NCBI GenBank assembly: GCA_018883245.1
Contig: VEQL01000030.1
Location: 1 to 33,199 of the forward strand
Length of the DNA: 33,199 nucleotides
Direction of reading: 5' to 3'
From: Chthoniobacterales bacterium
GTDB lineage: Bacteria; Verrucomicrobiota; Verrucomicrobiia; Chthoniobacterales; JACTMZ01
The notes under the pieces were generated by a model. That model worked only from the letters and a program-made list of their open reading frames with translations. It ran no database searches and was not told the DNA's origin. This document shows positions 1-20,201 of the stretch, piece after piece (the stretch's first letter is position 1; every line of letters begins with the position of its first letter). The translations under genes and the position numbers were made by a program.

Positions 1-149
1 AGGTCGTAGGCCGTTTCGATCACTTTCGGATTTCCCGTGCCATCGATGGTTACATCGGCCAATCCGCCGAGGATTTCCTTAATCCTTTCGGCGGCGTTTT
101 CGCGCGAGGCATTGATCTCATGCGTCAGGCCGTATTCCGCTGCCTTGGC
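1..149 (-). pseudogene. Truncated alcohol dehydrogenase copy (3' part, continues off the left edge)
   Basis: This stretch aligns without gaps to 1292-1440 inside the intact dehydrogenase gene at 1003-2040, with about 16 mismatches in 149 bases by hand count (roughly 89% identity). It covers the end of the NAD-binding Rossmann half. The translated frame is open here and differs from the intact protein at only about two residues, so most changes are silent. Homology stops abruptly at 149, and the stop codon of the toxin gene lies only 30 bases further on. The N-terminal catalytic half is missing on the upstream side. The rest of the fragment presumably continues beyond position 1, which cannot be seen. 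It is called a pseudogene because a dehydrogenase without its catalytic half should not work, although a GTG in frame just upstream could restart translation. Confidence 0.85.
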
Positions 150-178
150 ACCCCTCACATCCGGCGAGGGCGCGAGCA

Positions 179-439
179 TTATTTTGCTCTGAGAATCCTG
201 TCGTATTCCGCATGTGTGCCCACCCAGAACCAGAAATACGTGTCTTGGTCGAGAAGTGCCAAGGCGCGGTAGTCGTCATTGATGCGCACCGACCAGAACG
301 GGCCCACCTTTTTGAAACGCAGGGACGGGTGCCGCGGATCCACGAGCCATCTTTGGTATTGCTTACGGACACTTTTACGAATCCCGACGGGCAACTCGGC
401 GTAGGCGCGCCAAAACTTACTCGTCGCGGAGGACTTCAT
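179..439 (-). CDS. RelE/ParE-family toxin
   Basis: An 86-residue protein of the RelE/ParE superfamily, which are usually ribosome-dependent mRNA interferases or gyrase poisons. Typical segments are HPSLRFKKV at 37-45, WSVRINDDYRAL at 49-60 and WFWVGTHAEYDRIL at 69-82. The ATG at 439 was chosen over an upstream start at 466 because it gives the usual family length and begins inside the last codons of the antitoxin gene (23-base overlap), the standard coupled arrangement. The toxin is the last intact gene of the module: its stop codon lies 30 bases from a broken copy of the dehydrogenase gene. Family assignment is firm; whether it cuts mRNA or targets gyrase cannot be told from the sequence. 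Confidence 0.85.
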   Translation of the reverse strand: MKSSATSKFWRAYAELPVGIRKSVRKQYQRWLVDPRHPSLRFKKVGPFWSVRINDDYRALALLDQDTYFWFWVGTHAEYDRILRAK

Positions 440-638
440 GCATGGGCTTGGCTCTTCCTGCAGCAATGTCCTCCCGCACTTCGGCGATCAGCGAGTCTAA
501 ACGCCCGGCACGGTGGTCGGACTCGATTTGGGCATCCCAATCGTCCCACATGCGATCACTGAAGCGGTGCAAAAGACTCCATCGCTCCTCTGCGGGCAAC
601 CTCTCGATGGCAGTTTCTATTTCATGCACAGTGCTCAT
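417..638 (-). CDS. Antitoxin of the RelE/ParE-type module
   Basis: A 73-residue, acidic, probably mostly helical protein. Its first part (EIETAIERLPAEE) and its WDDWDAQIESD segment near residues 31-41 match a small antitoxin family that I recognise as the usual partner of this RelE-type toxin. The reading frame overlaps the toxin start by 23 bases, so the two are probably translationally coupled, with the antitoxin made first. No Shine-Dalgarno sequence is seen before the ATG at 638. Autoregulation of the pair is usual for such modules but no operator was identified here. The gap to the upstream orphan VapB-like gene is only 30 bases, so all three are likely co-transcribed. Confidence 0.8.
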   Translation of the reverse strand: MSTVHEIETAIERLPAEERWSLLHRFSDRMWDDWDAQIESDHRAGRLDSLIAEVREDIAAGRAKPMHEVLRDE

Positions 639-668
639 AGGAGAATTTTACACCCTGAAATGCCACGT

Positions 669-917
669 TCAAGTCCGGGAGCAACGCTTGGGCGGGACTC
701 CGCTTCTTGCGTGCTTTCTGGCAGTGCGCAGCACTTCCAAGTCAGCGGCCGTCATAAAAGTCTCGGAGCGGCCCAACTTGACGGCCAACGCCCGCATGCG
801 GCCGCGCCGGGTAAAATCATCCAACGCCGCGAGCACTGCGGCACGCTTGGTGCGGGCCCCAGACAGTCGGATAGCTTTTTCCAAGATCGGGGTCGGAATA
901 TCCAATGTTGTTTTCAT
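669..917 (-). CDS. Orphan VapB-type antitoxin
   Basis: An 82-residue protein whose first 60 or so residues fit the VapB antitoxin family: a short N-terminal strand (MKTTLDIPTPILEKAIRLSG), then a basic helical region with TKRAAVLAALDDF and an FMTAADLEVLR segment. The expected VapC toxin should begin at or just after its stop codon, but a different TA pair starts 30 bases downstream. The last 17 or so residues (rich in R, K and S) run past the normal end of the family, suggesting that the 3' end was rearranged when the neighbouring module arrived. It may be a relic, or it may have been adopted by the RelE-type pair as a third component. The ATG at 917 lies 86 bases after the dehydrogenase stop codon. 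Confidence 0.7.
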   Translation of the reverse strand: MKTTLDIPTPILEKAIRLSGARTKRAAVLAALDDFTRRGRMRALAVKLGRSETFMTAADLEVLRTARKHARSGVPPKRCSRT

Positions 918-1002
918 ACGGCAGGTTTACAGCGCTTTTATGGATACTCTACGGAAATATTCCACATTTTCGGCACAGGGGAAAGCGGGTCGACGCGGAG
1001 AC

Positions 1003-2040
1003 TCACTCGCGCGGGTTGGCGACAGCATGAATCACCTCGCCTGAACGCATCTTCCCAATGATCCGCTCAATATCAGCAAGACTGCCTCGGTGCGAGATGA
1101 ATCCGGAGCAATCGATTCGGGCCGAGGCAAGCTGATCCAAGATGCGGGGGATGTCCTTCTCTGGGCGGCTTTGGCCGCCCTCGGATCCGGTGAGAATGCG
1201 ACCAAAATGCAAGGGCAGTGTATGAATGCTGACCCGTTGATTGTGAGGCATCACACCGAAGAGCACGCAGCGTCCGCCACGCAGTTTGGCCAGATCGTAG
1301 GCTGTCTCGATCACTTTCGGATTTCCCGTGCCGTCGATGGTCACGTCGGCCAGACCGCCGAGAATCGCCTTAATCCGCTCCGCGGCGTTTTCGCGCGAGG
1401 CATTGATCTGATGGGTCAGGCCGTATTCCGCTGCCTTGGCCAGTTTGTGGTCATGAAGGTCGACGCCGATGATCGCATTGGCCCCGGCGAGCTTGGCGCC
1501 AAGCATCACACCCAACCCGATGCCCCCTACCCCGAAGATGACGACCGATTCGCCGCGTTGGACTTTCGCGTCGTTGTGGATGATGCCGAATCCAGTGGTC
1601 AGCGTGTCGGCCAACAGGCAGCACAGCTCGAAATCGGTATCCGGTGGGACTTTGGTCAGACGGTTTTCGGAAATGACCGCGTATTTCTGGAACGTGGTGA
1701 TCGGACCGGCGTTCACTTTGGTGCCGTTCCAATCATAGACCGAGCCCCCGGCATCAATCCCCGCTCCCGGACGCCAGTGGCAAACGACGCGGTCGCCCGG
1801 TGCAATGTGGGTCACTTCGGGACCAATCTCGAGGACAATGGCCCCAGCCTCATGACCAAGCAAATGCGGAAGGAATTGGTCGGGACCCTTGACGCCATCG
1901 ATCTCGCCAATCTGAGATCCGCAGACGCGGGTGGCATGGATTTCGACAAGCACTTGCCCGCGTTTGAGCGCAGGCACCTCGACTTCATCGATGACAAGCG
2001 GTTTGCGCTGCTCGACCAAAATGGCAGCGGGTGTTTTCAT
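1003..2040 (-). CDS. Zinc-type medium-chain alcohol/sugar dehydrogenase
   Basis: A 345-residue medium-chain dehydrogenase with an N-terminal GroES-like catalytic domain and a C-terminal Rossmann domain. Cys40, His63 and Glu64 (GHEAG) match catalytic zinc positions. The usual third ligand cysteine position reads ADTLTTG with Asp145, and the four-cysteine structural zinc loop is absent. The nucleotide-binding glycines are GVGGIG at 170-175. I start the protein at the ATG at 2040; an upstream in-frame start at 2079 would add 13 residues read from a repeat. As part of the polysaccharide cluster, the enzyme probably oxidises or reduces a hydroxyl on a sugar or sugar nucleotide; the substrate is unknown. 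The leader carries A-family repeats. A truncated second copy lies at 1-149. Confidence 0.88.
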   Translation of the reverse strand: MKTPAAILVEQRKPLVIDEVEVPALKRGQVLVEIHATRVCGSQIGEIDGVKGPDQFLPHLLGHEAGAIVLEIGPEVTHIAPGDRVVCHWRPGAGIDAGGSVYDWNGTKVNAGPITTFQKYAVISENRLTKVPPDTDFELCCLLADTLTTGFGIIHNDAKVQRGESVVIFGVGGIGLGVMLGAKLAGANAIIGVDLHDHKLAKAAEYGLTHQINASRENAAERIKAILGGLADVTIDGTGNPKVIETAYDLAKLRGGRCVLFGVMPHNQRVSIHTLPLHFGRILTGSEGGQSRPEKDIPRILDQLASARIDCSGFISHRGSLADIERIIGKMRSGEVIHAVANPRE

Positions 2041-2045
2041 GATTC

Positions 2046-2068
2046 TCTCACGGAGGCACGAAGACACC
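2046..2068 (+). repeat. A-family repeat, forward copy 1
   Basis: An imperfect 8-base-period repeat built on CACGGAGA / CACGAAGA-like units (CACGGAGG CACGAAGA CACC). It lies 5 bases upstream of the dehydrogenase start codon, so it is in the mRNA leader of that gene. Related copies follow at 2118-2187, 2236-2306 and 2700-2726. Confidence 0.75.
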
Positions 2069-2117
2069 AAGAGTAGCAATCTGAGGTAACGGCAAACATC
2101 TTCACAGTTTCAGACAC

Positions 2118-2187
2118 TCTGCGTCTCTGTGTCTTTGTGAGAAACACTTTTCCTTACTGCTTTCTCTCACGGAGACACGAAGACACA
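2118..2187. repeat. A-family inverted pair (hairpin unit 1)
   Basis: A reverse-oriented element (CTCTGCGT CTCTGTGT CTTTGTGA, 8-base period) is followed after a pyrimidine-rich spacer by a forward element (CTCACGGAGACACGAAGACAC). Bases 2129-2141 (GTGTCTTTGTGAG) pair with 2166-2178 (CTCACGGAGACAC) as a 13-base stem with two G-U pairs and a 24-base loop. The whole 70-base unit is similar to 2236-2306. Confidence 0.75.
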
Positions 2188-2221
2188 AGAAACGCTAAAT
2201 ACGAACAGACCATAGGTGTTT

Positions 2222-2698
2222 TCAAAGCTTCAAATCTCCAATGCCTTTGTGTCTTTGTGAAAAACCTTCTTCCGAACTGTTTCCTCTTACGGAGGCACGG
2301 GTGCTCAAAGGGATGGGATCCAAAGAGCCATTGATAATGCGAGTGATTCCGTCGCGCATGAGCGCTTCACCGAAGTTCAGCAAGTAACCCAACTTCAACC
2401 CAGTGAGTCGCAAATACGTCAAAAGCTGCTTCTTGTGCGCGGGTGTTACGTGTTCGACCGACTTCAACTCCAAGAGCACTTTTCCCTCCACAATCACATC
2501 TGCGCGAAAGCCCTCGGCAAATCGCTCGCCCTCATATTCGATCGGCACCGCAACCTGCCGTTCCACGCGAAGTCCGCGACGCTCCAGCGCCCGCGCCAAA
2601 GTCACTTCGTAGACGGTCTCAAGAAGACCAGGCCAAAGATCCCGAGGCAGAGCAACCGCACAGTCCACGACAGCGGATCCAATCTCATTCTCGTCCAT
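2222..2698 (-). CDS. GxxExxY family protein (PD-(D/E)XK nuclease-like)
   Basis: A 158-residue protein named for the GLLETVY signature at residues 24-30. The family is placed in the PD-(D/E)XK nuclease superfamily. Here Asp67 (FRADVIVE), Glu77-x-Lys79 (LELKS) and a QxxxY motif at 91-95 are all present, so a nuclease active site is plausible, though no function is established. The ATG at 2698 precedes the standard MDENEIG opening; a longer reading upstream is read from repeat DNA. The usual family C-terminus falls near 2324; the last 33 or so residues are encoded by repeat sequence. The core gene lies between two inverted A-family repeats (2284-2298 and 2711-2725), raising the possibility that gene and repeats form one mobile unit. 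Confidence 0.85.
   Translation of the reverse strand: MDENEIGSAVVDCAVALPRDLWPGLLETVYEVTLARALERRGLRVERQVAVPIEYEGERFAEGFRADVIVEGKVLLELKSVEHVTPAHKKQLLTYLRLTGLKLGYLLNFGEALMRDGITRIINGSLDPIPLSTRASVRGNSSEEGFSQRHKGIGDLKL
2236..2306. repeat. A-family inverted pair (hairpin unit 2)
   Basis: A second copy of the 70-base unit seen at 2118-2187, clearly diverged. Bases 2249-2260 (GTGTCTTTGTGA) still pair fully with 2287-2298 (TTACGGAGGCAC) when G-U pairs are counted, so pairing has survived substitutions in the right arm. The forward arm, 2284-2298, also matches the inverse of 2711-2725 at 13 of 15 positions across the GxxExxY gene. The unit encodes the C-terminal tail of that gene. Confidence 0.7.
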
Positions 2699-2699
2699 C

Positions 2700-2726
2700 T
2701 TCGTGTCTCTGTGCCTCCGCGAGAGT
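2700..2726 (-). repeat. A-family repeat, reverse copy at the right side of the GxxExxY gene
   Basis: This element (GTGCCTCCGCGAGAG at 2711-2725) is the inverse of the left copy at 2284-2298, with 13 of 15 bases matching. It sits 2 bases upstream of the GxxExxY start codon and 8 bases from the methyltransferase fragment at 2734. Confidence 0.7.
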
Positions 2727-2733
2727 CCCCAAT

Positions 2734-2808
2734 CTACTCGAAGTAGATGAAACTGTGGTCGCCGGTGTAGCCGGTTTATTTGAACTACCAGTCCCCGGCG
2801 TCGAAAGC
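2734..2808 (-). pseudogene. Degraded 3' end of a second methyltransferase copy
   Basis: Bases 2734-2794 align with the last 61 bases of the intact methyltransferase gene (3616-3676) with about 10 mismatches. Weaker similarity, needing a small gap, runs to about 2808. The shared C-terminal residues TGYTGDHSFIYFE and the stop codon are recognisable, but a glutamine and a tryptophan codon have become TAA and TAG, so the fragment is dead. Homology begins exactly at the stop codon. The upstream break is within about 6-20 bases of the vapC stop codon. This repeats the layout of the dehydrogenase locus: intact gene, TA module, then a stub of the same gene. Confidence 0.8.
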
Positions 2809-2813
2809 GTGTG

Positions 2814-3251
2814 TTATTTTGCTTGGCGCGTCCTCGCCTCTTTCGCCGGCAACCGCAGCTGTCCAAGGAGATCTCCGGGAATGCTCGTAAGATGCTTGTC
2901 GCGGTATACCAACACGAAACCGTTCGCTTTCGCGCACGCGGCGATCAAAAGATCCGTCAGCGGAATCCGGGCCCCAAGCGCTTCCCGGATCACCAGCGCC
3001 TCGCGGCCGACTTTTTCATCGACCGGGAGAGGATCTCCCAACGCGGCCCGATAGATCGAGAGGATCCGCGCTTTTTCTTTTGCCGTGTAGGTAGAGCGGC
3101 TCAAAAAGATTTCGAACTCGACCCAGGTCAGGATGCAGATGGCCAACTTGTCGCCGGAGGCCTCGAGCAAACGCTCGACCACCTCACACCCGCTCTCTTG
3201 CAACAAGTGGGCAAGCAGTGCGGACGTGTCGATGAGATAGCGCTTTTTCAA
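2814..3251 (-). CDS. vapC: VapC toxin, PIN-domain ribonuclease
   Basis: A 145-residue PIN-domain protein, the toxin half of a VapBC module. PIN toxins are magnesium-dependent RNases that mostly cut tRNA or rRNA. The acidic site is complete: Asp8 (LIDTSALL), Glu45 (TWVEFE), Asp100 (PLTDLLIAA) and Asp118 (VYRDKHL). The start codon overlaps the end of vapB by four bases (ATGA), the usual coupling. The gene ends a few bases from the broken methyltransferase copy. The RNA target cannot be predicted. Nothing suggests the toxin is inactive. Confidence 0.92.
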   Translation of the reverse strand: MKKRYLIDTSALLAHLLQESGCEVVERLLEASGDKLAICILTWVEFEIFLSRSTYTAKEKARILSIYRAALGDPLPVDEKVGREALVIREALGARIPLTDLLIAACAKANGFVLVYRDKHLTSIPGDLLGQLRLPAKEARTRQAK

Positions 3252-3535
3252 ACTTGACGGTCATGCGCCCGCTGCCAAGCGCGATCGGCTTCATACTCGG
3301 CCTTCAGCTTGGCGGCCGCCCTCTTGTTGCCCGTGGCAATTTTCTGTGCTTCGCGAAGCCGCGTCACTGCATCCGGCAACACCCGAGCCACGAGAGTCTT
3401 GTTCTTGGAGTCGGCTAGCCACACCAATCTGGTGCCGGTCTTTATACCGTGGCGCCGCGCGAGCACCGCGGGAATGGTGGTTTGCAGTTTACCTGTCACC
3501 AATGAACTTGGAAGGAGCGTGCTGCTGGAATCCAT
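3248..3535 (-). CDS. vapB: VapB antitoxin, AbrB/MazE-type DNA-binding fold
   Basis: A 95-residue antitoxin with an N-terminal SpoVT/AbrB swapped-hairpin segment (GKLQTTIPAVLARRHGIKTG, roughly residues 15-34) that would bind its own promoter. A charged helical C-terminus probably wraps around VapC. I use the ATG at 3535; a TTG at 3556 in the same frame would add seven residues. The stop overlaps vapC by four bases. The gene begins about 80 bases after the methyltransferase stop. The 3536-3615 gap shows no clear promoter, so the module may be read from the long cluster transcript as well as its own start. Confidence 0.88.
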   Translation of the reverse strand: MDSSSTLLPSSLVTGKLQTTIPAVLARRHGIKTGTRLVWLADSKNKTLVARVLPDAVTRLREAQKIATGNKRAAAKLKAEYEADRAWQRAHDRQV

Positions 3536-3615
3536 ATCAAGGAAATTATTATTCAAGGATTACGGGTGTCAAGGGGGCCGCCTTAAGCCAACAGCTCATG
3601 CGCCCCGCTCCACGC

Positions 3616-4284
3616 TTATTCAAAGTAAATAAAGCTGTGGTCGCCGGTGTAACCGGTTTGTTTGAACCACCATTCCCACTCATCCGGGGCGAAAAAGGCG
3701 CGGCAGGTCAGCTGCCAATAGAGCAGATTGGCTTTCTCTGATTCATTCCGCCAGCTCTCGACACAAAGGTAACGGTGTTTCTTGCCGACCCGCATCATTT
3801 CACGGAGCGCACGGTCGAGATCGTAGCAAGGCAGGTTGTGAAGCGTGTTGATGGAAAATACAAAGTCGAATTCGCCGTCGGCAAAGGGCACCTCGGACGC
3901 TTTACCATGCACCATGCGGTCCTTCACCTCGGGCTTGGCGTGGTCGATGGCATACGAACTGATTTCCAGACCGGCAACCTCAATTCCGGGGACGGCTTGG
4001 GTGAGATCGTAGAGCAGGAAACCCTTCCCGCAGCCGATATCGAGGACCTTGTCGCCGGCCTTGAGTCCGTAGTGTTTCGCCATCAGGTCCGCGACCTTGC
4101 GCCAGCGTCCGTCGTAATTCATGCCGCCGTAGCCGGTCCGACGGTCGCCATCCCAATATTCGACGTCCCATTTCAGCGCCAGTTCGGCAGCCTTGGCCTT
4201 CGGGTATTCAGGATCGTTGACCCTAGCGAGGTAGTCGCGCGTTGTCGCCTTGTGGATCGGCGCGATGAAATCGACGTAGGACAT
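3616..4284 (-). CDS. Class I SAM-dependent methyltransferase
   Basis: A 222-residue methyltransferase. Motif I is VLDIGCGKG at residues 80-88, and the Rossmann core continues through GLEISSYAI and the acidic FADGEFDFVFS segment. The roughly 75-residue N-terminal cap contains YWDGDRRTGYGGMNYDGRW, which may help bind the substrate. In a polysaccharide cluster the likely job is methylation of a sugar or sugar nucleotide, but the acceptor is not known. The protein ends in the aromatic-rich WEWWFKQTGYTGDHSFIYFE tail that is duplicated as a pseudogene at 2734. The leader (4285-4324) consists of a C-family repeat, and no Shine-Dalgarno sequence is apparent. Confidence 0.88.
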   Translation of the reverse strand: MSYVDFIAPIHKATTRDYLARVNDPEYPKAKAAELALKWDVEYWDGDRRTGYGGMNYDGRWRKVADLMAKHYGLKAGDKVLDIGCGKGFLLYDLTQAVPGIEVAGLEISSYAIDHAKPEVKDRMVHGKASEVPFADGEFDFVFSINTLHNLPCYDLDRALREMMRVGKKHRYLCVESWRNESEKANLLYWQLTCRAFFAPDEWEWWFKQTGYTGDHSFIYFE

Positions 4285-4287
4285 GAG

Positions 4288-4324
4288 AGGAAATGAAGAA
4301 GTTAAAGTGAAGAATGCAGAATTT
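4288..4324 (+). repeat. C-family repeat, forward copy
   Basis: An AT- and purine-rich repeat with an approximate 7-base period (AAATGAA, AAGTGAA, GAATGCA units), filling the whole gap between the nucleotidyltransferase stop codon and the methyltransferase start codon. Confidence 0.7.
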
Positions 4325-4894
4325 TCAGAGACCCGACGCCAAACGCTCGAATTTTTCCATGCTTTCGGAATCCTCTTTGGCTTCGAGCAAGGGGCACAGT
4401 TCTTTCCGGATCAAAGAAAGGTCGAGTTGTTTGCCTTGGCGCGACAACACGCCTCGCACATCGGCCCAGTCTCTATCGCGCCCGGCAAAAACTTTATGCA
4501 CGATTAGATCCTCGGCCGAGCAGGTTGGCAAAACGCAGCTCTCTCTGAAAGCATAGTCCGACGACCTCTTCACAGATCGCTCCTCAAACGGAAGTGCCCC
4601 CAGCGCCACATCGAGATCAACTCCATTCCCGGCTTTGAGCAACACCACGCGTGCTCGCTGGGCAAACTCTGCAGCATCCGCACGCCGCGGCGCGAAATTA
4701 CCTACCAACTCGTCAATGAATACACTCTCCGAACCAAAGCCCGTTAACAACGTGAGATCAGCGTCGCGCGTGAAGCGCGGTTCGCCCCAACGCTGCACGG
4801 CAAGACCACCGATGAGACAGCTAGGCCAATCTCGCTCGCGGCAGAAGCTCACAAGTTCCGAGGCTGCGACAAGAACGGGTGTCAGCTCCGACAT
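4325..4894 (-). CDS. AbiEii/MNT-like nucleotidyltransferase
   Basis: A 189-residue member of the DNA polymerase beta-like nucleotidyltransferase fold, resembling the AbiEii/AbiGii toxin group. The active-site region shows GG at 29-30, the RWGEPRFTRDADL stretch around 35-47 with Asp44 and Asp46 as likely metal ligands, and a later LDVALG segment that may supply the third acidic residue. Such proteins act as toxins or antitoxins by nucleotidylating tRNA or proteins. The start overlaps the end of the preceding 78-residue gene by 13 bases, so the pair looks like a coupled TA-like module lodged in the polysaccharide operon. Function is inferred from fold only; it could be a housekeeping nucleotidyltransferase. 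Confidence 0.75.
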   Translation of the reverse strand: MSELTPVLVAASELVSFCRERDWPSCLIGGLAVQRWGEPRFTRDADLTLLTGFGSESVFIDELVGNFAPRRADAAEFAQRARVVLLKAGNGVDLDVALGALPFEERSVKRSSDYAFRESCVLPTCSAEDLIVHKVFAGRDRDWADVRGVLSRQGKQLDLSLIRKELCPLLEAKEDSESMEKFERLASGL

Positions 4895-5118
4895 AGCTTG
4901 CCAAAGATTCGTTGCTGCTCAACCAAGCCCGAATCCGGGCGCGAGCCTTGGAGAAACCATTCTATCGGTCCGGCCAGAACGTCGGCGATGGCACGCAGGT
5001 GCTCTTCTTCGCTTTGAGCGCGAAACGCCTCGGCGCGCAGTCGTTCCAACTCGGGACCATAGGTCTCCCAGCGGCGAACGTGGGCGGCGAGAGCAGCCTT
5101 CTCCTCGTCTTTGTTCAT
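4882..5118 (-). CDS. Small helical partner of the nucleotidyltransferase
   Basis: A 78-residue charged protein, probably nearly all helix (KAALAAHVRRWETYGPELER near the N-terminus, an aromatic GPIEWFLQG segment in the middle). I do not recognise a named family. The ATG at 5118 overlaps the transketolase stop as ATGA, and the 3' end overlaps the nucleotidyltransferase start by 13 bases, so it is tightly coupled on both sides. This arrangement of a small helical gene before a nucleotidyltransferase resembles antitoxin-toxin pairs. The ATG at 5118 was preferred over an upstream start at 5169 that would lie inside the transketolase gene. Confidence 0.6.
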   Translation of the reverse strand: MNKDEEKAALAAHVRRWETYGPELERLRAEAFRAQSEEEHLRAIADVLAGPIEWFLQGSRPDSGLVEQQRIFGKLCRS

Positions 5119-6036: not shown

Positions 6037-6072
6037 GAAAAAGTTAAAAGGCGGAATGCAAAGTGAAGAATT
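6037..6072 (+). repeat. C-family repeat, forward copy (left side of the bIVP gene)
   Basis: A degenerate AATGCAAAGTGAAGAA-type element that contains the bIVP stop codon at its right edge and ends one base from the start codon of the transketolase C subunit. Its inverse lies at 6419-6450, on the other side of the bIVP gene. Confidence 0.7.
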
Positions 6073-6421
6073 ACTGCCTGCGGGCGGTCTTGATGCTGGA
6101 AACGAGTATAGCAGTAATCTCACCTGTTTCTTCCAGCAATGGTTGCAGTCTTCTCGGCGAAACCAAGGATTCCTCAGACAGGAGTTCCAACCAATACGCC
6201 GACTCACTGGCCTCCTTAAGCGAATCCCCCAGCTTGGCGATAAATTCGGCCTTACTGCGCGAACGCATTGCTTCCCGGTAGTTCGCCCCGATGGATGTGC
6301 CGCTTCGCAACAATTGATGTCCTAGCACTTGCGCAGCCCCGCTTCGCGGCAAGGCGGAATACAAGCGAATAACGCGGCGCGCATACTCCTTAGTTCGCGC
6401 TTCCAGAACTTTCTCAGACAT
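6071..6421 (-). CDS. Four-helix-bundle protein (bIVP / 23S intervening-sequence-protein family)
   Basis: A 116-residue all-helical protein of the bIVP (S23/intervening-sequence protein) family, typified by LLRSGTSIGANYREAMRSRS around residues 38-57, followed by FIAKLGDSLKEASESAYWLELL. Relatives occur inside 23S rRNA intervening sequences, and the Avd protein of diversity-generating retroelements shares the fold, but freestanding members have no settled role; nucleic-acid binding is likely from their basic faces. The gene interrupts the split transketolase, between its N and C subunits. Inverted C-family repeats lie at both ends, and the start codon itself is inside one. No reverse transcriptase or rRNA gene is in this window. 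Confidence 0.88.
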   Translation of the reverse strand: MSEKVLEARTKEYARRVIRLYSALPRSGAAQVLGHQLLRSGTSIGANYREAMRSRSKAEFIAKLGDSLKEASESAYWLELLSEESLVSPRRLQPLLEETGEITAILVSSIKTARRQ

Positions 6422-20117: not shown

Positions 20118-20201
20118 GCTCGGGTGGTGAAATGGCAGACACGTGCGTTTGAGGGGCGCATGCCGCAAGGCATGGGGGTTCAAGTCCCCCCCCGAGCACC
20201 A
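20118..20201 (+). tRNA. tRNA-Leu (anticodon GAG)
   Basis: An 84-base tRNA with the long variable arm of class II tRNAs. Acceptor arms GCTCGGG (20118-20124) and CCCGAGC (20191-20197) pair. The anticodon stem TGCGT/GCGCA encloses the loop TTGAGGG, giving anticodon GAG at 20151-20153, which reads CUC and CUU. The variable arm (TGCCGCAAGGCA) and T arm (GGGGGTTCAAGTCCCCC) are regular. The 3' ACCA is encoded. Fumarase follows 35 bases downstream. Confidence 0.96.

What the first reader, a model, noticed from the sequence alone, without database searches (positions are those of the whole stretch)
1..4284. TA modules sit between an intact gene and a broken 3' copy of the same gene, at two neighbouring loci
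Seen: in the direction of transcription the order is intact methyltransferase (3616-4284), vapBC, degraded methyltransferase 3' end (2734-2808); then intact dehydrogenase (1003-2040), orphan vapB plus RelE-type pair, dehydrogenase 3' part (1-149). In both cases the fragment begins within about 6-30 bases of the toxin stop codon. Known: integrative elements that target gene 3' ends can replace the 3' end and leave the old one on the far side. Inference: either TA cassettes entered this way, or homologous exchange of cluster genes left stubs at junctions where TA modules then accumulated. Two independent occurrences argue against chance.
Basis: partly seen in the sequence, partly recalled or inferred. 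Interest (0 to 1): 0.82.

Follow-up and report, generated by a model that had tools for sequence, protein, structure and literature searches.

The report
Toxin-antitoxin genes beside recombination scars
In an uncultured bacterium, small toxin-antitoxin gene pairs sit between a working gene and a leftover scrap of an older version of that same gene, which suggests the pairs arrived by an unequal DNA exchange anchored in the neighbouring gene, and the same layout recurs in relatives.

Summary
At two neighbouring operon junctions the order is intact gene, toxin-antitoxin (TA) genes, then a 3'-ward fragment of the same gene starting 3-6 and 30 bases after the toxin stop. The window is a whole contig, so the dehydrogenase (ADH) stub is cut off at position 1.

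Relatives resolve the methyltransferase (MT) case. In G008, G036 and one named contig MT abuts ADH. G003 and G006 have MT-GxxExxY-ADH, collinear with the window's GxxExxY gene and stub. G001 and G010 have MT-vapBC, collinear with the window's intact MT and vapBC. The window is a hybrid, so the MT stub is the old native 3' end.

Differences between intact copy and stub fall mostly at third codon positions (24 of 30 over three stubs), so the copies diverged mainly as working alleles, not as a fresh target duplication. I count eight such trios in five genomes, two stacked in series in G010. One rule hit 6 of 59 PIN-toxin loci and 4 of 363 controls; by eye 4 and 0 are clean trios.

Best explanation: one-sided homologous exchange anchored in the upstream gene, with a non-homologous join after the toxin gene. 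No integrase was seen in the window's cassettes.

The parts
1..149 (-). ADH stub: fragment of the dehydrogenase gene (codons about 201-249), open frame, runs off the contig end
   Evidence: 89% nt identity to 1292-1440; contig C30 ends at 1
179..466 (-). ParE_like toxin gene
   Evidence: PF24732, E 7.4e-6
417..638 (-). putative antitoxin ORF overlapping the ParE_like gene
   Evidence: position and overlap only; no Pfam hit
669..917 (-). orphan VapB antitoxin (vapB2); G010 keeps the homologous vapB with a PIN gene after its ADH
   Evidence: PF09957 E 2.6e-8; G010 VapB2 84% aa followed by a PIN ORF
1003..2040 (-). intact zinc-binding dehydrogenase (ADH)
   Evidence: PF00107, PF08240
2222..2698 (-). 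GxxExxY / PD-(D/E)XK_3 gene, the native downstream neighbour of the MT stub (start codon chosen by eye)
   Evidence: PF13366 E 1.4e-35; collinear with G003/G006
2734..2811 (-). MT stub: last about 25 codons with stop; two in-frame stops and, by eye, a 6-nt deletion
2814..3251 (-). VapC-type PIN toxin
   Evidence: PF01850 E 1.9e-18
3248..3535 (-). MazE/VapB-type antitoxin
   Evidence: PF04014 E 5.9e-5, 23.4 bits, just under its cut-off of 24.7
3616..4284 (-). intact class I SAM methyltransferase (MT)
   Evidence: PF08241 E 4.6e-19
4325..5118 (-). AbiEii-like nucleotidyltransferase and small partner, a further cassette in the operon, no stub detected
   Evidence: PF08843 E 1.2e-6 for the first ORF, no hit for the partner; a relative of the partner lies beside vapBC in G010

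Best explanation
The trios are scars of one-sided homologous exchange between related lineages. Incoming DNA carried a homologous copy of the operon gene (MT or ADH) followed by TA genes. It recombined by homology within or upstream of that gene, and its other end was joined without homology, near the toxin's stop codon, to the interior of the resident allele. The result is an intact (donor or hybrid) gene, the TA genes, then the resident allele's 3' remnant still attached to its native downstream neighbour. Shown: two allele types in relatives, the hybrid order in the window, the native setting of the MT stub, mainly third-position divergence, recurrence and stacking. Inferred: entry as linear DNA (for example by transformation), the non-homologous join, and that TA addiction helps retain the insert.
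For: Empty sites: MT and ADH abut in G008, G036 and named contig L061. Recipient type: the GxxExxY gene plus stub are collinear with G003 (window 2245-2795, 77%) and G006 (2220-2795, 78%), where the stretch runs into the real MT 3' end; DNA just past the stub stop resembles the MT-GxxExxY junction of both. Donor type: window vapBC plus MT is collinear with G001 (81% over 1462 nt) and G010 (82% over 1506 nt). MT 3' end (61 nt): intact copy 92-97% to G001/G002/G010 but 85-87% to G003/G006; at 4 sites separating these groups (picked by eye; at one of them only G010 is aligned on its side) the stub has the G003/G006 base at 3 and the intact copy at 0. Third codon positions: ADH 12 of 16, MT 7 of 9, C5 locus 5 of 5; stub-branch changes 13 of 17, p 3e-4. 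Series: G010 ADH-vapBC2-stub A-TA2-stub B, with stub A followed by TA2 as intact ADH is in G006. Further trios: C5 of the own genome, G008 L206, G003 L230, UBA9088 L114. Excess at PIN loci. ComEC family in 11 of 11 genus genomes.
Against: Over its whole 61 nt the MT stub is no closer to G003/G006 (85.2%) than to the intact copy (85.2%) or G002 (86.2%); the case for its origin rests mainly on gene order. The homologous crossover in MT could not be located. No sampled genome is the direct donor or recipient (about 72-84% identity in aligned stretches). Among sampled sequences the ADH stub and ADH intact copy are each other's closest (89%), as are the C5 copies, so there the two alleles must come from unsampled close strains. 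Stub-branch changes at ADH are only 4 of 6 at third positions, and all differences in the G008 trio only 6 of 11. No Ku gene in 11 of 11 genomes, so the joining activity is unknown. Why joins fall so near toxin stops is unexplained. Most PIN loci tested are not trios.
Confidence: 0.68

Rival explanations
1. A donor fragment holding the 3' part of the gene plus the TA closed into a circle and integrated by one crossover, giving a repaired intact gene, TA, then a stub that starts at the circle's joint.
For: Gives the same final order; circularisation by ligation and single crossing-over is a described fate of linear DNA in E. coli (abstract of PMC3240628). Possible for the ADH stub, which would be about 435 nt long if it runs to the gene end (inferred).
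Against: The crossover would have to fall inside the stub-length overlap: 60-62 nt detected at 82-92% for MT, C5 and G008, 171 nt at 70% for G003. That is very short for RecA (general knowledge).
Confidence: 0.15
2. TA modules insert like restriction-modification systems with long target duplication: insertion itself duplicates the gene's 3' end.
For: Similar module-between-duplicates layout is reported for R-M systems (passages of PMC3031569); ADH and C5 copies are each other's closest relatives among sampled sequences.
Against: Copies that were identical at insertion should then differ by unbiased changes in the dead stub; instead stub-branch changes are mostly third-position (13 of 17). The MT stub sits in the G003/G006 setting while the intact end groups with G001/G002/G010. 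The same TAs in relatives have no detected duplicate. For ADH alone the test is not decisive.
Confidence: 0.07
3. Metagenome assembly chimera: contigs of different strains falsely joined.
For: The named records are MAGs; four contigs of this operon end inside ADH or its stub, a sign of graph ambiguity; G010 carries this stretch on two contigs at 99.7%.
Against: The joins lie at non-homologous sequence, where assemblers rarely switch (general knowledge); the layout recurs in five genomes and also inside long contigs (C5 of 121 kb, G010 C32 of 187 kb); MT stub decay (two stops, a deletion) needs time.
Confidence: 0.06
4. A site-specific integrase targets gene 3' ends and the element carries a replacement 3' end (as recalled, from no call, for icd and prophage e14).
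For: Allelic 3' ends with synonymous differences would also follow from this. One trio (G008 L206) has an integrase-like ORF about 0.3 kb beyond its stub (by eye).
Against: No integrase among the 10 window proteins tested; stub starts differ between events in the same gene (ADH codons about 201, 225-230, 260); unrelated genes and TA types are involved.
Confidence: 0.03

Closest known systems
Insertion with long target duplication of restriction-modification systems (Nobusato et al. 2000: title seen in a reference list; statements about it seen as passages of PMC3031569; original not read)
   Same: A small addiction module is flanked by a long duplication of target sequence.
   Different: Here the module is a type II TA (or a nucleotidyltransferase-HEPN pair), and the two copies are diverged alleles, the MT one still in its native downstream setting, so duplication at insertion does not explain them.
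Homology-facilitated illegitimate recombination (HFIR; abstract of PMC3240628)
   Same: Homologous join on one side, illegitimate join on the other, linear donor DNA.
   Different: Described from laboratory work; here inferred from genome scars, repeated, stacked and found at TA loci.
R-M systems inserted in operons, and replacement of an R-M pair by a toxin-like gene (hrgC) that left terminal fragments of the R-M genes (passages of PMC4615327)
   Same: Co-directional small modules between operon genes; leftover gene ends after a replacement.
   Different: There the remnants are of the replaced R-M genes; here they are 3' stubs of a host gene whose intact copy stands on the other side of the TA.
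VapBC and ParE-like type II TA families
   Same: The modules themselves are ordinary by Pfam, apart from one antitoxin-like ORF without a hit.
   Different: The unusual part is the arrangement, not the proteins.

Membership tests
Insertion with long target duplication | Direct repeat of target DNA flanks the module | tested here: met
   61 and 149 nt repeats
Insertion with long target duplication | The two repeats arose from one target copy at insertion | tested here: not met
   Stub-branch changes third-position biased, 13 of 17; MT stub lies in the G003/G006 setting while the intact end groups with G001/G002/G010. Inconclusive for ADH taken alone
Homology-facilitated illegitimate recombination | One side of the insert is collinear and homologous with a donor-type allele | tested here: met
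   Window MT-vapBC collinear with G001 and G010
Homology-facilitated illegitimate recombination | Other side is a junction without extended homology | tested here: met
   vapC stop joined to MT codon about 197; sequences after vapC in G001/G010 and before the stub point in G003/G006 look unrelated by eye; no alignment statistic was computed
Homology-facilitated illegitimate recombination | RecA dependence, linear DNA entry | not testable with these tools
   Needs experiment
Site-specific integrative element in gene 3' ends | Integrase in or next to the insert and a constant att core | tested here: not met
   No integrase among 10 window proteins tested, 179-5118; three ADH stub starts differ. 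One G008 trio has an integrase-like ORF nearby (by eye)
Integron cassette | attC site after the cassette gene | tested here: not met
   No room for one in the window: 3-6 nt between vapC stop and MT stub, about 30 nt between ParE stop and ADH stub; attC size recalled, no attC search was run

The most novel reading that the evidence does not exclude
Small TA modules act as recombinase-free mobile cassettes: they ride on the 3' part of whatever gene lies upstream, using it as a homology arm, enter other lineages by one-sided exchange, and are kept by addiction. Each arrival leaves the displaced allele's 3' stub behind, so gene-TA-stub-TA-stub series are a layered record of successive arrivals, across phyla.
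Probability: 0.3. Interest if true: 0.8.

Novelty: new variant of a known kind. Interest (0 to 1): 0.58.

Why it matters
How solitary chromosomal TA modules, which carry no recombinase, move between genomes is to my knowledge an open question. Here a junction can be read with both allele types in hand, and the stubs give a searchable signature that orders arrivals. If the excess at TA loci holds against a better control, it gives a concrete route and a way to count TA acquisitions in any genome collection.

Tried and rejected
Rfam and tRNA scans: no RNA family at the gathering threshold in the window, one tRNA-Leu at 20118-20201; no link to the trios.

Own-genome search for the missing part of the ADH stub: none found.

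Sliding identity along TKc, MT and ADH to find the crossover: no clear switch in MT; in ADH the last 300 nt are mostly closer to G010 (which shares vapB2) than to G003/G006, suggestive only.

C31 of the own genome (L148/L187) first looked like two more trios. I dropped it: by eye the repeated pieces are the front of a decayed ABC-ATPase-like gene plus a GC-rich insertion, and the ORF has no Pfam hit. C8 (L143/L165) repeats an inner piece of the PIN gene itself (third positions 4 of 9) and was not counted. Other direct repeats in the 833 kb scanned looked by eye like tandem paralogues, repeats within large proteins, IS-like, intergenic or low-complexity sequence; not each was traced. A cruder test found a straddling repeat at 10 of 332 own-genome ORFs, one of them the C31 vapC. 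Looking only for straddling DNA repeats, several PIN loci (for example L139, L147, L216, L218, L226) had repeats that look intergenic or low-complexity by eye and were not counted.

In the rule-based test the two order-level hits, L266 and L268, rest on doubtful upstream ORFs: kept in the raw count (6 of 59), left out of the clean count (4 of 59). The 4 raw control hits are L158 (shared protein tail), L165 (the C8 PIN piece), L174 (repeat) and L188 (tandem paralogue). The clean/unclean split is by my eye. Loci shorter than 3.2 kb (cut by contig ends) were dropped before the count: 15 of 74 PIN loci and 4 of 43 adh_short loci; in loci cut only a little the gene position is approximate. G010's ADH trios and the window's ADH trio are not in these counts. 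Against the adh_short control alone the difference is not significant (5 of 59, counted before L268 was set aside, vs 0 of 39, p 0.07). PIN loci were those the searches returned as best matches, not a random sample.

Among the 80 loci, a tblastn pass showed further partial ADH copies only in L057 (G010), and the DNA self-repeat pass picked out L114; self-repeats in 12 other loci were not traced to genes.

Paper searches for TA or R-M with target or partial duplication, truncated copies, flanking-gene recombination, or HFIR: I saw listings, one abstract (PMC3240628) and find-passages of three papers (PMC3031569, PMC2654758, PMC4615327). None of what I saw describes TA modules between a gene and its allelic stub; absence from print is not claimed.
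Full report
Where it is. The window is the whole of contig C30 (33199 bp) of an 84-contig, 2.9 Mb genome. The operon on the minus strand runs RfaE-like, transketolase N and C halves, MT, ADH; the first three names are by eye, MT and ADH by Pfam.

Observation. Both stubs are real. MT stub: 61 nt at 85%, E 1e-12. ADH stub: 149 nt at 89%, E 3e-51. Both start just after a toxin stop. The ADH stub is cut by the contig end.

What relatives show. I compared the operon in seven same-genus loci from six genomes (two contigs of G010) and in more distant G036. G008 and G036 have no insert: MT and ADH abut; named contig L061 agrees. G003 and G006 carry only a GxxExxY gene between MT and ADH, and the window aligns to them without a break from that gene into the MT 3' end (window 2245-2795 and 2220-2795); the bases after the stub stop resemble their MT-GxxExxY junction. 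G001 and G010 carry vapBC directly after MT, and the window aligns to them without a break through MT and vapBC. G002 has other inserts there. So the window holds both allele types one after the other, and the stub is the resident's old 3' end. The last 61 nt agree, though the sites are few and picked by eye: the intact copy is 92-97% to G001/G002/G010 and 85-87% to G003/G006; the stub has the G003/G006 base at 3 of 4 group-separating sites, the intact copy at none. Over the whole 61 nt the stub is about equally far from all (85% to G003, G006 and the intact copy, 86% to G002).

Not a duplication made at insertion. Differences between intact copy and stub fall at third codon positions in 12 of 16 (ADH), 7 of 9 (MT) and 5 of 5 (C5); 24 of 30 in all, p 2e-7 against one third. 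That test includes changes on the intact branch, which would be biased anyway. Polarised by relatives, stub-branch changes alone are 4 of 6, 5 of 7 and 4 of 4 at third positions: 13 of 17, p 3e-4 (the C5 polarisation was read by eye from the five relatives shown, and one of its four sites rests on 3 of 5). The MT stub's two non-third changes make its two stop codons. So most divergence happened while both copies coded. For ADH alone this is not decisive. All differences in the G008 trio are 6 of 11 and in the G003 trio 33 of 51 at third positions.

Recurrence. Trios counted: window MT and ADH; C5 of the same genome (208-aa gene without a Pfam hit, vapBC, 62-nt stub at 92% ending two bases after the stop); G010 ADH twice; G008 L206 (Methyltransf_28 gene, vapBC, stub about 6 nt after the toxin stop); G003 L230 (GT4 glycosyltransferase, vapBC, 171-nt stub at 70%, followed by what looks like another antitoxin-PIN pair); and UBA9088 L114 (an ADH, a nucleotidyltransferase-HEPN pair, a 109-nt ADH stub at 79%), picked out among the 80 loci. 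That is eight trios in five genomes, in each the TA co-directional with the gene and the stub on the 3' side. Distances from toxin stop to stub, mostly by eye, run from about 0 to 62 nt.

The series in G010 reads ADH, vapBC2, stub A, TA2, stub B. In G006, intact ADH is followed by the same TA2 (84% over 840 nt) and then a membrane-protein-like gene (by eye) that abuts ADH in G008. So stub A, like the MT stub, is still attached to the neighbour its intact form has in a relative; the spacer between them differs in length.

Controls. One rule (C-terminal 150 residues of a co-directional upstream ORF, tblastn against 1.5 kb downstream, E 1e-3) gave hits at 6 of 59 complete PIN loci (own 2 of 19, genus 2 of 21, order 2 of 19), 0 of 39 adh_short loci and 4 of 324 ORFs from 39 stretches of the own genome. 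By eye 4 of the 6 and none of the 4 are clean gene-stub trios. All hits, 6 of 59 vs 4 of 363: p 8e-4; clean hits, 4 of 59 vs 0 of 363: p 3e-4. Against adh_short alone, 5 of 59 vs 0 of 39, p is 0.07. PIN loci are the best matches returned, and many of the 324 ORFs may not be genes. TA genes are also often recent arrivals, so the right control, recently acquired non-TA genes, is missing.

Inserts often leave no stub: I detected none with vapBC in G001 and G010, TA2 in G006, the four-helix-bundle gene, GxxExxY in G003/G006 or the AbiEii pair of the window. My reading is that stubs appear where two differing alleles meet.

Mechanism. The data fit a homologous join in or upstream of the gene and a non-homologous join after the toxin gene. 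The ComEC family is present in 11 of 11 genus genomes, so DNA uptake is possible; Ku is not found in 11 of 11 (its search rings in 1 of 14 control genomes, Bacillus subtilis), so the end-joining step needs another activity. The nearness of joins to toxin stops may reflect survival of inserts that keep a whole TA, followed by trimming; this is inference.

Comparison with what is known. R-M systems, also addiction modules, are reported to insert with long and variable target duplications (passages of PMC3031569). HFIR is described in three competent species and at low frequency in E. coli (abstract of PMC3240628). This case looks like the first and most likely works like the second. The claim of a new variant rests on diverged allelic copies, stacking and the tie to TA loci.

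Noticed in passing
window 6071-6421 (-): A four-helix-bundle (S23-like, named by eye) ORF lies between the transketolase N and C genes; relatives of it are there in G001, G006 (in two frames) and G010, not detected in G003, G008, G036, and elsewhere in the operon in G002.
   Followed up: partly
window 2043-2306 and 2698-2725: Short CTCTCACGGAGACACGAAGACAC-type repeats, direct and inverted, bracket the GxxExxY gene; a similar one follows MT in G003 and G006.
   Followed up: partly
window 1; L028, L026, L030: Four contigs of different genomes (G000 C30, G001 C70, G002 C82, G010 C5) end inside ADH or its stub, as if ADH were repeated or strain-variable.
   Followed up: no
L187 1-4954 (G000 C31): Three copies of a decayed ABC-ATPase-like fragment (by eye) with a shared GC-rich insertion, spaced by vapBC and a pair of which one ORF weakly matches DUF2283, again at a contig end.
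   Followed up: partly
L206 2182-3360 (-): An integron-type tyrosine integrase ORF (by eye) lies just downstream of the G008 gene-vapBC-stub trio.
   Followed up: no
L034 4469-5879 (G041): In another family of the order, a 37-residue MT C-terminal remnant and an ADH N-terminal remnant lie beside a PIN-like gene (by eye), with no full-length close MT found by the search in that genome.
   Followed up: partly
G002 and G006 genomes: PIN-domain loci vary strongly within the genus: 40 in G002 and 36 in G006 against 5 in G005 and 6 in G007; completeness of these assemblies also varies.
   Followed up: no
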